Shown: positions 52,207-57,479 of the stretch, piece after piece | How positions within the stretch are numbered: the first letter of the stretch is position 1 | Layout of the letters: the number at the start of each line of letters is the position of its first letter | From: Pseudomonas sp. NFACC02 | GTDB taxonomy: Bacteria > Pseudomonadota > Gammaproteobacteria > Pseudomonadales > Pseudomonadaceae | DNA: 64,000 nucleotides | Direction of reading: 5' to 3' | NCBI RefSeq assembly: GCF_900110765.1 | Contig: NZ_FOEO01000025.1 | Coordinates: 1 to 64,000, forward strand | Translations under genes and position numbers: made by a program | The notes under the pieces: generated by a model | Told to the model about the DNA's origin: nothing | The model's input: the letters and a program-made list of their open reading frames with translations, nothing else | Databases searched by the model: none

Positions 52207-52865
52207 TGGGGCGCCGGCTTGCTGGCGAATGCGTTGGGTCAACAACATCAATGGTGACTGACCCACCGCCTTCGCTGCCCTCGTAACCTCGGACGTCTCC
52301 TACAGGGTCCGGGTTGAAGCACGAACACGTGTCCAGACCGCAGACCTGTGGGAGCCGGCTTGCTGGCGAATGCGGTGGATCAGCGAGATCACCATTGACT
52401 GACCCACTGCATCGCGGCCCTCGTAACCTCGGACGTCTCCCACAGCGTCCGGGTTGAAGCGCGAACACGTGTCCAGACCGCAGACCTGTGGGAGCCGGCT
52501 TGCTGGCGAATGCGGTGGGTCAACAACATCGATGGTGACTGACCCACCGCCTTCGCTGCCCTCGTAACCTCGGACGTCTCCCACAGGGCACCGGGTGGAT
52601 GCACGAAATTGTGTTCAAACCGCAGACCTGTGAGCCGGCTTGCTGGCGAATGCGGTGGGTCAGCAACCTCGATGGTGAATGAACCACCGCATTCGCTGCC
52701 CTCGTAACCTCGGACGTCTCCCACAGGGAACGCGTTGTTTCGAAGACTTGAGGACGACGCTGATACTGTGGCCGGCTTGAACTGGCGAATGCGGTGGGGC
52801 AGCGACATCACCCGTGACTGACCCACCGCCTTCGCTGCCCTCGTAACCTCGGACGTCTCCTACTG
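52207..52865. repeat. REP array 3: five tandem units
   Basis: Units near 52207-52305, 52347-52445, 52486-52585, 52628-52727 and 52767-52864, period 139-142 bases. Linkers are of two kinds: one with GAACACGTGTCCAGACCGCA, the other with CGAAGACTTGAGGACGACGC. Both kinds also occur in arrays 1 and 2. No gene is seen in this stretch. Confidence 0.9.
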
Positions 52866-52910
52866 AGCCCGGGTTGATGCACGCACTTGTGTTCTGCCGC
52901 AGCGCGCCGC

Positions 52911-54230
52911 TTATTCGATATGCAACGTCGAGTTGAACTGGCTGATGGCATCCACCACATGCCGCGAGCCTTGCTGGATCTCCAGAATCACTTCCCCGGC
53001 CTCGTTGGCCAGCTCGACGCCGGTGTCTGTCCGGCTCAGGCTGGACTGCATGCTCGAGACCGCACTTTTGGCCAGCTCATTGTTCTGTCGCACCACGTCG
53101 ACAATTTCCACCGTCGCCTTGCTGGTTCTGGCCGCCAGGCCCCGCACCTCGTCGGCGACCACCGCGAAACCACGCCCGTGTTCTCCGGCACGCGCCGCCT
53201 CAATGGCGGCGTTGAGTGCCAGCAGGTTGGTCTGGTCGGCAATTCCGCGAATGGTCTGCACGATGGTCGCAATGACCTCCGACTGTTTGTTCACGGCATC
53301 GATGCTGCGTGCCGCTTCATTAAGGTCGGCCGAAATCTGCTCGATCACTTCCACCGTTTGCTGCACCACACTCGAGCCTTTCCGCGCGCACGCGTCAGTA
53401 CGTACCGAGGTGTCGTGCGCCGTGGTCGCGGCACAACGCTGCACAGTGACCTGCTCGGTAATGTCGCTGGCGAATTTCACTACTTTGTACAAACGGCCGT
53501 TGGCGTCGAATAACGGGTTGTAGGTGGCTTCCAGATAAACGCTCTCACCCAGTTTGTTCACCCGTTCGAATCGATGGGCATGATATTCGCCCCGGTTCAG
53601 TGAGGCCCAGAACGCCTTGTACGAAGGCGACTCGACTTCAGCCCGGGTGCAGAACAGGCTGTGGTGCTGGCCGATGACCTCGTTGAGCGGGTACTGCATC
53701 GTCTTCAGGAAATTCTCGTTGGCGGTAATGATCCGGCCGTCCGGACTGAATTCGATGATCGCCATCGAGCGACCGATCGCATCGATCATGCTCTGGTTTT
53801 CATGGTTCTTCTGCGAGCGAACGGTGATGTCGGCAGCGACCTTGATCACGCTCTGGACTTTGCCGTCACTGTCGAACACCGGCATGTAACTCGCTTCCAG
53901 CCAGATCTCGCGCCCTGACTTGTCCAGGCGCATGAACGTCCCGCACAGTGGTTCGCCACGGGCCAGGTCGCGCCACAATTGAGCGTAGGCGTCGCTGTCG
54001 CAGAAGGCTTTTTCGCAAAAGATCCGGTGATGTTTGCCCACCAACTCACCGGGCTGATAGCCCATGGCGAGACAGAACTTCTCGTTCGCCTCGAGGATGA
54101 TGCCGGCGGGCGAAAACTCGATCATTGCCATGGAACGGCTGATCGCCGCCAGCTTGGCCTTCGATTGGCAGAGGTCCGCGGTTGATACCTGCAATTGGGC
54201 TTCGATGGCTTTGCGGTGTGAATTGAACAT
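52911..54230 (-). CDS. PAS-PAS methyl-accepting chemotaxis transducer, BdlA-like
   Basis: 439 residues. Two PAS domains (about 29-135 and 150-258) are near repeats of each other ([19 protein letters not shown] versus [19 protein letters not shown]). The C-terminal signalling domain has the hairpin [20 protein letters not shown] (330-349) and [19 protein letters not shown]. There is no membrane segment, so it is a soluble transducer like P. aeruginosa BdlA, which controls biofilm dispersal. BdlA homologues usually begin nearer the first PAS; here about 28 extra residues precede it. Confidence 0.88.
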
Positions 54231-54707: not shown

Positions 54708-55709
54708 TCAATGCTGACGGTGTGCCGCGCCGAACAGCTGGACTTGCTGCAACCGCCCGTCTTCTTCAACCAGGCGTACCGGCGCTGTCCCGCCGGGCAT
54801 GACCACGTCCACCAGACCTGCCTGAACCCAGCCGCTCAGCCATGCTGCGGAGGCAACCGCGCTGGCGCTGGTGCCGGAAGACGCCGTTGGCCCTTCGCCG
54901 CGTTCGAAGACGCGGGCCAGGATCCGGTTCGGCGCAGCTTTCGCGGCCCATTGCAGGTTGATGCCGGCGGGGCATGGATCGCCTTCGCCCAAGTCTCCGG
55001 CGGCAAACGCGATGCGGGTCAGTGCGTCGTTCAGCGGCTGCTCGTGCAATTGTTCAAAGGTCGGCAGCGAAGACGCGTCGGCGACCAGCGTCACGCAATG
55101 CGGATTACCGACCCGGACGAAGACGCTGGTCTGCCAGTCGGGATGCAGACGGGCAAGACGCTCGACTCGGCTGACCGGGTGTTGATCCAGCAGGGTGTCG
55201 CTCACGCCCGGACCTTTGGCGCCGACTGCCGGCGCACCGAACCCCGGCGTACCGATGTCCAGCCAGAACCCCGAGACACCTTCGATGACGGCCGGGACGA
55301 CTTGGGTCGGGACCGGGCTGGCCGAGTCGCTGTTGTCGTGATGAACCCTCAGGGTGAAACCGTCGTCGCTCAATGTCCGGCGAGCGTCGGTCAACGACTG
55401 GGCGAAGATGGTCAGACCGTTGCCACTGCGTTCGGCGAGGGTGCCGTCGGTGTTGACGATCAGCACATCAAACGGCGCAGTGTCCTGAAACGGACCGACC
55501 AGCAGGCCGTCCGAGCGATGCGCTTTGCTGCCGGCAGGGCGTTGACCTTCGGGCCAGTCGCAGATGGCTGCGACCGCCTTGGCGGTCCATGCTCGCCGAG
55601 CCAGCGCGGCGTCAGAGGCGGATTCAGGGACGTCGATGCCCAATGAACGCAACGCATCAGGCGAAATCACGGCGTAGATATTGCCGCGTGCATCGTAGAA
55701 GGGGGCCAT
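54708..55709 (-). CDS. DapF-like protein with both catalytic cysteines replaced
   Basis: 333 residues of the diaminopimelate epimerase fold: DARGNIYAVI, RSGNGLTIF, VRVGNPHCVTLV and FERGEGPTASSGTSA match DapF landmarks. In DapF the two catalytic cysteines sit in CGNG and ACGTGA; here they are S95 and S278. The two-base acid/base racemase chemistry therefore cannot be as in DapF. GNPHCV is kept. A role as a different isomerase, or a binding protein, is open. Start at 55709 is preferred over 55730 by alignment; neither has a clear ribosome site. Confidence 0.75.
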   Translation of the reverse strand: MAPFYDARGNIYAVISPDALRSLGIDVPESASDAALARRAWTAKAVAAICDWPEGQRPAGSKAHRSDGLLVGPFQDTAPFDVLIVNTDGTLAERSGNGLTIFAQSLTDARRTLSDDGFTLRVHHDNSDSASPVPTQVVPAVIEGVSGFWLDIGTPGFGAPAVGAKGPGVSDTLLDQHPVSRVERLARLHPDWQTSVFVRVGNPHCVTLVADASSLPTFEQLHEQPLNDALTRIAFAAGDLGEGDPCPAGINLQWAAKAAPNRILARVFERGEGPTASSGTSASAVASAAWLSGWVQAGLVDVVMPGGTAPVRLVEEDGRLQQVQLFGAAHRQH

Positions 55710-55800
55710 GGCGGGTCCGGGGGGCGGCATTGGAAAACCGCTATTAAATCAGGCTTTTCATCCTGGTTTGGACACCTCTTTTTTGGAAACAGCGGACACC

Positions 55801-55886: not shown

Positions 55887-56489
55887 TCACATCACCAGCG
55901 TCAACCACGCGGACACCAGCAACAGCACCGCCATGGCCTGGTTGAACCGCTTCATGCTCTGCGCCGAGCGGCAGAATTTCGCCGCGCTGACACCCAGATA
56001 CGCCCACGCGGTCATGCAAGGAATCGACACCAGGAAGAACATCAGCGACAACCACATCACGCGTAACAGGCGGTCGGCGTCTGTGCCCGCGAACACACTG
56101 ACCACCGCCAGGGCCATCATCCAGGTCTTCGGGTTGACCAGTTGCAGACTGGCCGCGCCCCAAAGGCCCAGCCGCGGGCCGCTTTTCGCCTGAGAAGGAT
56201 CGACCGCTTCGGCTGGCGCACTGAAGATCTGCCACGCGAGCCAGGTCAGCCACGCGATCCCGATCCACGACATCACCGTCTGGACCTGCAGATGCCGCGC
56301 CAGCACATCCCCTAATCCTGTCCCCACCATCAGCACCAGCAAGGCCGCTCCGCCGCAGGCGCCCAAGACAATCGGCGCCGTGCGCAGCAGGCCATACCGC
56401 GAGCTGTTGGTCAGCACCAGAATGTTGGTCGGGCCGGGAGTGATGGAAGCGACGAAAGCGAACAACAGGAATGGCAGAAAGGTGTGCAT
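55887..56489 (-). CDS. LysE-family amino acid exporter
   Basis: 200 residues, six predicted membrane segments. The LysE/RhtB signature SITPGPTNILVLTNSSRYG (about 16-34) and the NPKTWMMALAVVS segment are clear. It exports amino acids or related compounds across the inner membrane. It lies 54 bases downstream of an AraC regulator on the same strand, a common pair in which the regulator controls the exporter. Confidence 0.9.
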   Translation of the reverse strand: MHTFLPFLLFAFVASITPGPTNILVLTNSSRYGLLRTAPIVLGACGGAALLVLMVGTGLGDVLARHLQVQTVMSWIGIAWLTWLAWQIFSAPAEAVDPSQAKSGPRLGLWGAASLQLVNPKTWMMALAVVSVFAGTDADRLLRVMWLSLMFFLVSIPCMTAWAYLGVSAAKFCRSAQSMKRFNQAMAVLLLVSAWLTLVM

Positions 56490-56543: not shown

Positions 56544-57380
56544 TCAGTCTGGAAGAATTGAGCAGCGTCTGCGGTAGTCGGCAGGGGTCATGCGATAGGC
56601 GCGCTGGAACCAGCGACCGAGGTGGCTCTGATCGGCAAACCCCAACGCGGCCGCAACCGTGACGGGCAGTTCGCCACGGGCCAGCAGACGCCGGGCGCGG
56701 GCCAGACGCAACTGGATCAGATAGGCGTGTGGCGCCAGGCCGAACGCCGCCTTGAACGCGCGGCTCAGGCGAAAACGGTCCACGCCGGTCACAGCCGCCA
56801 GATCGTCAAGACCGATGTCCTGGTGCAGATGGCTGTGCAGAAAATCCCGCGCGCGCTGCGCCACCAGCGGCAGACGCGGATCGGGGCTGATCAGGGCACG
56901 CCAGTGCACGTGGCGGGTGAGGTTCGACAGCAGGTTGTCCAGCGCGGTCTGGCGCACGATGCGCAGCTCGTCGTTGTGCATGGCTTCGAACGCATTGGCG
57001 GTAGCGATCGCCAGACGGCTGTCATCGGCAAGGGTCGCGGCAAAACCCAGTTGAGCGTTGTCCGGCGCTTCCTCGAACTGAGCGTGCAGTTCACGGTCCA
57101 GCCAGTGCGGGTCCAGGTAAAGCGTACGGTAGGTAAATCCGCCCGCTTGCGGGGCGTTACCGTCATGGATATCGCCAGGTTCGAGCAGGAACACCTTGCC
57201 GGGGGTGCTGTTGTGTTGCTGGCGACGGCAATTGAACTGTTGCAGACCTTGCTCGGTGATGCCCACCAGATAGCTGTCGTGCCAGTGGGGATCGTACGCA
57301 TGCCCCTCGAAATGCGCGCGCACCGTCTCGATGCCGGACGTTGCGTCCTGCTTGAGATCGATCCAGTTGCGTTCGGGCAT
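56544..57380 (-). CDS. AraC-family transcriptional regulator
   Basis: 278 residues: an N-terminal cupin (HFEGHAYDPHWHDSYLVGIT) and two C-terminal helix-turn-helix motifs (LDDLAAVTGVDRFRLSRAFK and VTVAAALGFADQSHLGRWFQ). I start at 57380 (MPERNW) because GAGGAACCCC sits before it; 57395 is the alternative. It probably regulates the downstream lysE gene in response to an amino acid. Confidence 0.9.
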   Translation of the reverse strand: MPERNWIDLKQDATSGIETVRAHFEGHAYDPHWHDSYLVGITEQGLQQFNCRRQQHNSTPGKVFLLEPGDIHDGNAPQAGGFTYRTLYLDPHWLDRELHAQFEEAPDNAQLGFAATLADDSRLAIATANAFEAMHNDELRIVRQTALDNLLSNLTRHVHWRALISPDPRLPLVAQRARDFLHSHLHQDIGLDDLAAVTGVDRFRLSRAFKAAFGLAPHAYLIQLRLARARRLLARGELPVTVAAALGFADQSHLGRWFQRAYRMTPADYRRRCSILPD

Positions 57381-57479
57381 GGGGTTCCTCGTCATAAGCG
57401 CGGCATCAGGCTGACGTACATTACCGTGCAGCCTGACGCCGGGTCTGGAAGATTTGTGCAGCAGCCGACCAGCGTCGAT

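What the first reader, a model, noticed from the sequence alone, without database searches (positions are those of the whole stretch)
54708..55709. DapF-fold protein with both catalytic cysteines changed to serine
Alignment by eye of the CGNG and ACGTGA signatures gives S95 and S278, while other landmarks such as GNPHCV remain. The two-base racemase mechanism needs thiols, so the protein probably has another reaction or a binding role. Its length and intact fold argue against a decaying gene.
Basis: partly seen in the sequence, partly recalled or inferred. Interest (0 to 1): 0.65.

Follow-up and report, generated by a model that had tools for sequence, protein, structure and literature searches.

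The report
Serine-serine relative of diaminopimelate epimerase
A Pseudomonas gene encodes a relative of the amino-acid-flipping enzyme DapF in which both essential cysteines are serines, and related double-serine proteins look like the only DapF in a few other bacterial genomes, so serine may do a job thought to need cysteine.

Summary
The minus-strand ORF (stop 54708, best start 55709, 333 aa) has the DapF fold, with Ser at both catalytic cysteine sites (S95, S278). Both serines are kept in every long-family homologue aligned that covers them, and dN/dS is about 0.1. The own genome also has an ordinary Cys/Cys dapF.

The inference 'no thiols, so another reaction' is weakened. The gene belongs to a larger Ser/Ser branch that splits from Cys/Cys DapF with 100/100 support. 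It keeps all eight ligand-binding residues shown essential in Corynebacterium DapF, and adds Lys/Arg before the first Ser and a third Ser three residues after the second. In one other order of Pseudomonadota, five sampled genomes show only a Ser/Ser DapF. It lies in dapB-(dapA)-X-dapL-like operons; lysA was found in all five and meso-DAP dehydrogenase in none, so it is probably their DAP epimerase.

Best explanation: the window protein is a Ser/Ser amino-acid epimerase or racemase for a DAP-like amino acid. In its own clade it lies beside a LysE exporter and an AraC regulator; its nearest short relative has distant versions of both. Substrate and activity are untested. I found no report of a natural Ser/Ser DapF in the library searched.

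The parts
54708..55709 (-). long-form Ser/Ser DapF-like gene, 333 aa from the ATG at 55709 (an in-frame ATG at 55730 would give 340 aa)
55425..55427 (-). codon of first catalytic-site serine, S102 in 340-aa numbering (S95 in 333-aa numbering); DapF Cys83 site (C. glutamicum numbering); preceded by Arg101
54876..54878 (-). codon of second catalytic-site serine, S285 (S278); DapF Cys221 site (C. glutamicum numbering)
54867..54869 (-). codon of S288, a third serine at i+3 that goes with the Ser/Ser pair (66 of 66 Ser rows that cover it, 0 of 57 Cys rows)
55887..56489 (-). LysE-type translocator gene, next upstream on the same strand
   Evidence: Pfam LysE 1e-16; beside the gene in 7 of 7 close relatives
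56544..57395 (-). AraC-family regulator with AraC_binding sensor domain, upstream of lysE
   Evidence: present in 7 of 7 close relatives
52911..54230 (-). PAS-domain methyl-accepting chemotaxis protein downstream; neighbour in 6 of 7 close relatives, functional link doubtful

Best explanation
The gene encodes a DapF-fold, cofactor-independent amino-acid epimerase or racemase in which a serine pair (S102, S285) takes the place of the thiol pair. Shown: the fold, the two serines, their conservation, and retention of the DAP-recognition residues (N17, N93, N104, N209, N258, E276, R277, T287) and of the GNPH histidine. Inferred: S102 and S285 face each other across the alpha-carbon at the N-termini of two helices and act as acid and base. 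Their hydroxyls would be activated by the helix dipoles, by the adjacent Arg (R101), by the i+3 serine (S288), and by H211 and E276. Inferred from the kept recognition subsite: the substrate is a DAP-like or other amino acid with a distal carboxylate. Inferred from context: in the window's clade the L/D interconversion is coupled to export through LysE under AraC control, apart from cell-wall DAP synthesis, which the own Cys-dapF would serve.
For: Fold match Z 27.5 to P. aeruginosa DapF. Eight of eight residues essential in CgDapF are kept: seven in every Ser row that covers them, the eighth as Thr or Ser in 65 of 66 (Pro in L050) (PMC5296763 section 8). Short Ser/Ser relatives are the only DapF seen in 5 of 5 such genomes of one order, in dapB/dapL-like operons, with lysA 5 of 5 and Ddh 0 of 5. 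Four of four short proteins scanned pass NCBI's DapF equivalog cut-off, 224-243 bits against 114.65. Ser/Ser and Cys/Cys sequences split on a 100/100 branch, also without the four trait columns. The long family groups with the short protein of G565 (94/85; 91/82 without trait columns), which also has AraC and LysE-type neighbours. Precedent: a Ser/Cys pair works in a 4-hydroxyproline epimerase and a Ser/Thr pair in a dehydratase of the proline racemase superfamily (PMC4113996, passages).
Against: I saw no activity data for any Ser/Ser protein. Single Cys-to-Ser mutants of PddB keep less than 0.1% activity (PMC8225329). The window protein scores only 66 bits against the DapF equivalog cut-off of 114.65, is about 60 aa longer than DapF, and its genome has a normal dapF on another contig. 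So the sole-DapF argument holds for its cousins (27% identical for the nearest), not for it. The sole-DapF claim rests on one protein query at E<=1e-10 for four of the five genomes; only G740 was also searched with Pfam. The shared AraC and LysE neighbours of G565 are distant (26% and 32%), of common families and differently oriented. In the other large clade, 12 of 12 named loci have an MFS gene and 0 of 12 the LysE or AraC. The gene is broken in 4 of 76 genus genomes, so it is dispensable.
Confidence: 0.6

Rival explanations
1. [quoted passage not shown]
For: Ser/Thr pair in a dehydratase of the same fold superfamily (PMC4113996 passages). Contexts vary widely, and in one genome a short Ser/Ser gene lies beside an MFS gene and genes that I read by eye as aromatic-ring-cleavage genes (L111).
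Against: Both sites are Ser in every complete Ser row, whereas a one-base enzyme would not need the second. The amino-acid recognition residues are intact. The dap-operon members point to epimerisation.
Confidence: 0.17
2. Pseudoenzyme: the protein binds a DAP-like amino acid but does not turn it over, acting as a sensor or buffer beside a transporter.
For: Cys-to-Ser mutants of cofactor-independent racemases are nearly or largely inactive (PMC8225329, PMC11602996 passages). All substrate-binding residues are kept. Neighbours are a regulator and a transporter.
Against: Ser rather than random residues at both sites, with coupled changes at 101 and 288. Short relatives appear to stand alone in the DAP pathway of five genomes, where a mere binder would leave LysA without meso-DAP.
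Confidence: 0.13
3. Oxidant-proof copy of an ordinary reaction: the thiols were replaced because DapF cysteines form an inactivating disulfide, not because the substrate changed; the enzyme is a slow but redox-insensitive DAP epimerase.
For: C. glutamicum DapF is reported to be regulated by a reversible disulfide between the two cysteines (PMC5296763, passages). Recognition residues are identical.
Against: The long form is longer and falls below the DapF cut-off. The own genome keeps a Cys-dapF.
Confidence: 0.1

Closest known systems
Diaminopimelate epimerase DapF (TIGR00652, PF01678)
   Same: fold (Z 27.5), GN, DG, GNG, GNPH, N and ERG motifs, all eight ligand-binding residues essential in CgDapF
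   Different: both catalytic Cys are Ser; Arg before the first Ser; G/A to Ser at i+3 of the second; about 60 extra residues; below the equivalog cut-off
Short Ser/Ser DapF group defined here (KSGNG ... [AS]SG[TS]SS)
   Same: both serines, basic residue at 101, S288, Q260, on the Ser side of the 100/100 branch
   Different: about 265-290 aa, Lys instead of Arg at 101, above the DapF cut-off in 4 of 4 scanned, found in at least three orders; some members look like the sole DapF of their genome
Ser/Cys 4-hydroxyproline epimerase and Ser/Thr t3Hyp dehydratase (proline racemase superfamily)
   Same: fold superfamily, Ser as a catalytic residue; there the Ser is held by the residue at i+3
   Different: different sequence family and substrates; Ser at one site only, and there it is the first site, whereas the i+3 Ser here follows the second site; no Ser/Ser pair in the passages read
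PddB and HisR/CntK
   Same: DapF-type amino-acid racemases with substrates other than DAP
   Different: two catalytic Cys (PMC8225329, PMC11602996 passages); functional analogues, not nearest sequences

Membership tests
DapF, diaminopimelate epimerase (TIGR00652 equivalog) | NCBIfam DapF equivalog score of 114.65 bits or more | tested here: not met
   66.1 bits
DapF, diaminopimelate epimerase (TIGR00652 equivalog) | Pfam DAP_epimerase (PF01678) above gathering score | tested here: met
   57.5 bits against 34.7
DapF, diaminopimelate epimerase (TIGR00652 equivalog) | DapF fold | tested here: met
   Foldseek ranks 1-26 are all DapF or O-ureidoserine racemase; Z 27.5 to 8qzy
DapF, diaminopimelate epimerase (TIGR00652 equivalog) | Two catalytic cysteines | tested here: not met
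   Ser at both, invariant in the family
DapF, diaminopimelate epimerase (TIGR00652 equivalog) | Residues that bind DAP (CgDapF N15, N74, N85, N159, N194, E212, R213, T223) | tested here: met
   all eight present in the window protein (with PMC5296763 section 8)
DapF, diaminopimelate epimerase (TIGR00652 equivalog) | LL-DAP to meso-DAP activity | not testable with these tools
   needs an assay
DapF, diaminopimelate epimerase (TIGR00652 equivalog) | Is the only dapF of its genome | tested here: not met
   own genome has a Cys/Cys dapF on contig C62
Ser/Ser DapF branch (long plus short) | [KR]-S-G-N-G and S-G-[TS]-S signature and placement on the Ser side of the Cys branch | tested here: met
Proline racemase superfamily | Pfam match to the proline racemase family | tested here: not met
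   not listed up to E 1, though the program's filters drop most matches above about 0.1; fold similarity only, Z 20-24
PhzF family | Pfam match to the PhzF family | tested here: not met
   not listed up to E 1, same limit; fold similarity only, Z about 20-23.5

The most novel reading that the evidence does not exclude
Nature uses a serine-serine pair, with no thiol, for two-base epimerisation at an amino-acid alpha-carbon. In one lineage of another order this Ser/Ser DapF is the only source of meso-DAP for cell wall and lysine, and Pseudomonas has an elaborated exporter-linked version acting on another amino acid.
Probability: 0.48. Interest if true: 0.82.

Novelty: new variant of a known kind. 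Interest (0 to 1): 0.62.

Why it matters
Cofactor-independent DapF-type racemases are described as thiol chemistry, and Cys-to-Ser is a common way to slow or kill them (PMC11602996, PMC12039745, passages). A natural family that keeps the rest of the active site without the thiols, and that seems to carry the DAP pathway in some genomes, would show how an enzyme makes serine basic enough, and should resist oxidation and thiol-directed inhibitors. It also warns that proteins scored as 'diaminopimelate epimerase' include a Ser/Ser group. The signature found here ([KR]SGNG plus SG[TS]S) makes the question directly testable.

Tried and rejected
Decay or chance Ser: rejected by invariance and dN/dS of about 0.1. 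A shifted cysteine replacing the second catalytic one: two of the dap-operon members read ASGSSSVAA there and two ASGTSSSAA, with no Cys in that stretch; the window family reads ASSGTSASA. Plasmid or viral gene: no plasmid match for the window protein and no viral-contig relative; the phages collection was searched only with a short protein and gave only matches under 60% identity, eight of 27 listed. Wide spread of the long form: 1 of 274 class genomes at E<=1e-30 (the own genome), 3 of 398 phylum genomes at E<=1e-15 (all genus Pseudomonas, own included), and 5 of 119 family genomes, two of them of another genus (g428); a sixth match there is a Cys DapF. Those searches scored few candidates per genome and may miss some. 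A metallophore reading for the MFS-type clade (FecI/FecR/TonB genes nearby, CntK-like racemase) was considered; the TonB gene is nearest to a ferric-dicitrate receptor though below that model's cut-off, and the window's clade lacks these genes, so it was dropped. Literature: eight searches showed no report of a natural Ser/Ser DapF; most subscription papers and all bioRxiv preprints are missing from that library. Solved structures: with one short protein (L110) 17 distinct PDB sequences match at E<=1e-5, named DapF or O-ureidoserine racemase; the three alignments shown have Cys, the others were not read; 2q9h and 2q9j are engineered C73S and C217S mutants.

Limits: the 57 Cys rows are nearly all from Pseudomonadota genomes, so positions such as G75, C212 and I108 that look Ser-specific there are not claimed (plant and Anabaena DapF share some). 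The tree (18 of 52 long, 15 of 15 short, 44 of 57 Cys rows) is unrooted, so gain or loss of Ser cannot be told. In the order of G740, 92 of 105 genomes matched and 30 loci were read: 5 Ser/Ser and 25 Cys/Cys; 62 genomes' matches were not read. That no second DapF exists rests alone for four of the five Ser/Ser genomes. No model coordinates were available, so the distance between the serines was not measured. The transporter-neighbour pattern was noticed after the fact and not tested against chance. Class and order names of the G genomes are not given; 'probably alphaproteobacterial' is my inference.

Full report
What is there. The minus-strand ORF 54708-55730 encodes a protein of 340 aa. The internal ATG at 55709 gives the 333 aa of the finding and is the better start, because homologues align from about there. 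The nearest named genome is Pseudomonas abietaniphila (L034, 90% identity). Pfam DAP_epimerase matches at 1.8e-15, but NCBI's DapF equivalog model gives 66 bits, below its 114.65 cut-off. AlphaFold gives pLDDT 89.8. The best solved match is P. aeruginosa DapF, Z 27.5, 268 residues, rmsd 2.8, 24% identity. The own genome also carries an ordinary dapF with Cys at both sites.

The serines. In 340-aa numbering the DapF cysteines read S102 and S285 (S95 and S278 in the finding). A 124-row alignment of the distinct DapF-type proteins fetched up to that point falls into 52 long Ser/Ser rows, 15 short Ser/Ser rows and 57 Cys/Cys rows. One long row (L052) is a broken gene and lacks the second half. No mixed Ser/Cys row was seen. 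dN/dS to seven close relatives is 0.10-0.14. By my count of the rows, 76 of 149 sampled Pseudomonas genomes (own included) carry the long form, 4 of them broken or with a stop; three further genomes listed there have only weak hits. Of these 76, 30 loci were fetched by that call and read.

What is kept and what changed with them. Structural work on C. glutamicum DapF (PMC5296763; passages and section 8 read) found that alanine at N15, N74, N85, N159, N194, E212, R213 or T223, or at either Cys, nearly abolishes activity. The window protein has the equivalents of all eight: N17, N93, N104, N209, N258, E276, R277, T287. Across the 67 Ser rows the first seven are invariant wherever covered; the eighth is Thr in 59, Ser in 6 and Pro in one (L050), and in the Cys rows it is Thr in 48 and Ser in 9. 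These residues include the side chains that hold the distal carboxylate of DAP. The GNPH histidine, called essential together with the Glu in PMC5885031 (passages), is also kept. Two further positions change with the serines. The residue before the first Ser is Arg in 52 of 52 long rows and Lys in 15 of 15 short rows, against Gln, Ala and others in the 57 Cys rows. The residue three after the second Ser is Ser in 66 of 66 rows that cover it and Gly or Ala in 57 of 57 Cys rows. In Ser-type members of the proline racemase superfamily the catalytic Ser is held by the residue at i+3 (Asn93 for Ser90; PMC4113996, passages). The parallel is mine and is not exact: there the Ser is at the first site, while here the i+3 Ser follows the second site, and i+3 of the first Ser is Gly.

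A second, shorter Ser/Ser group. One weak hit led to a group of about 265-290 aa with the motifs KSGNG and [AS]SG[TS]SS. It is found in some Pseudomonas and in other genera: 7 of 398 phylum genomes at E<=1e-65 and 13 of 371 order genomes at E<=1e-55, with two different queries and overlapping genomes. A maximum-likelihood tree of 77 of the rows puts all its Cys proteins on one side of a 100/100 branch and all its Ser/Ser proteins on the other. The result is the same with the four trait columns removed. The long family groups with the short protein L103 of genome G565 (94/85; 91/82 without the trait columns), to which the window protein is 27% identical.

The strongest functional clue. In the order of genome G740 (same phylum but another class; small, A+T-rich genome; probably alphaproteobacterial, my inference), 92 of 105 genomes match a Ser/Ser query at E<=1e-10. 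Of the 30 loci fetched, 5 are Ser/Ser and 25 Cys/Cys. The five Ser/Ser genomes each give one match only. In G740 a separate Pfam search also finds only this protein; the other four were not searched that way. In all five the gene lies directly before a gene like LL-DAP aminotransferase and downstream of dapB, with dapA between in four (outside G740, gene names are by likeness to the G740 operon, except that the aminotransferase of G911 was scanned). In the G740 operon NCBIfam names lysA, dapB, dapA and DapF over their cut-offs; the aminotransferase has LL-DAP aminotransferase as best match but below cut-off, and the aspartokinase passes its subfamily model. LysA was found over cut-off in 5 of 5. 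Meso-DAP dehydrogenase was found in 0 of 5, by a search that rang in 8 of 14 control genomes. LysA needs meso-DAP (established knowledge), so something must epimerise LL-DAP, and the Ser/Ser protein is the only candidate seen. G977 is only 80% complete; the others are 98-100%.

Context of the window gene. In the window and its seven nearest relatives from genome contigs the order is AraC regulator, LysE exporter, Ser/Ser gene, on one strand; a chemoreceptor follows in the window and in six of the seven. Three further genomes have the same AraC and LysE nearby, in two of them some 2 kb away (L068, L070, L071). In the window the gene starts 156 bases after lysE from the first ATG, so it may have its own promoter. 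Genome G565 and two relatives (L198, L199, read by eye) have a Ser/Ser gene followed by an AraC gene on the same strand and a LysE-type gene on the other. The G565 LysE and AraC are 32% and 26% identical to the window's, so related but distant members of common families. In 12 named loci of the other large clade the neighbours are instead an MFS gene (12 of 12), a TonB receptor (11 of 12) and cytosine deaminase (10 of 12), with the window's LysE or AraC in 0 of 12. Other short members lie beside EamA, SstT, MFS or (by eye) peptide ABC transporter genes, near a FAD oxidoreductase of the DAO family, or in a small aminotransferase/A-domain cluster; several have no transporter in sight. Transporters recur, but this was noticed after the fact and was not tested against chance.

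Interpretation. The pieces fit a Ser/Ser epimerase: same pocket residues, serines in place of thiols, with local changes that could make them work. Against it stands the chemistry: Cys-to-Ser mutants of PddB keep less than 0.1% (PMC8225329, passages), and those of HisR are greatly reduced (PMC11602996, passages). Those are single changes in enzymes adapted to Cys, without the accompanying residues. For the window protein itself the substrate is open. The kept recognition subsite suggests an amino acid with a distal carboxylate, and the exporter suggests a product that leaves the cell. I give 0.6 to epimerase or racemase, 0.17 to a one-base elimination or isomerisation, 0.13 to a non-catalytic binder and 0.1 to a redox-proof DAP epimerase.

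Novelty. Ser/Cys and Ser/Thr pairs are described in the proline racemase superfamily, where the paper also notes clusters missing one or both Cys (PMC4113996, passages). No Ser/Ser pair in the DapF family was found in the eight literature searches made. Four of four short members scanned pass NCBI's DapF model, so that model would name them diaminopimelate epimerase and the difference is easy to overlook.

Noticed in passing
window 52209-52883: Array of about 4.8 copies of a 140-base unit (82% matches) between a deaminase-like gene (named by eye) and the chemoreceptor gene.
   Followed up: no
L114:2438-8499 and L106:859-6923: In two Pseudomonas genomes a short Ser/Ser DapF ends a small cluster of aminotransferase, ketosynthase-III-like, AMP-binding, carrier-protein-sized and MFS genes, possibly a small natural-product cluster (four L114 genes scanned, L106 by likeness).
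   Followed up: partly
L063:5629-7745: A short Ser/Ser DapF lies next to a FAD oxidoreductase of the DAO family (best NCBIfam match glycine oxidase ThiO, below cut-off), which would fit L-to-D conversion followed by oxidation.
   Followed up: no
L111:174-7494: A short Ser/Ser DapF beside an MFS transporter and genes that by eye resemble extradiol dioxygenase and pyrone hydrolase genes (only the MFS gene was scanned).
   Followed up: no
genome G689: Pfam hits at three separate places, so this Pseudomonas has three DapF-type proteins.
   Followed up: no
L201:8420-9139: A gene that by eye resembles aspartate/glutamate racemase lies about 1.7 kb from a short Ser/Ser DapF, which itself follows genes that look like a peptide ABC transporter.
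   Followed up: no
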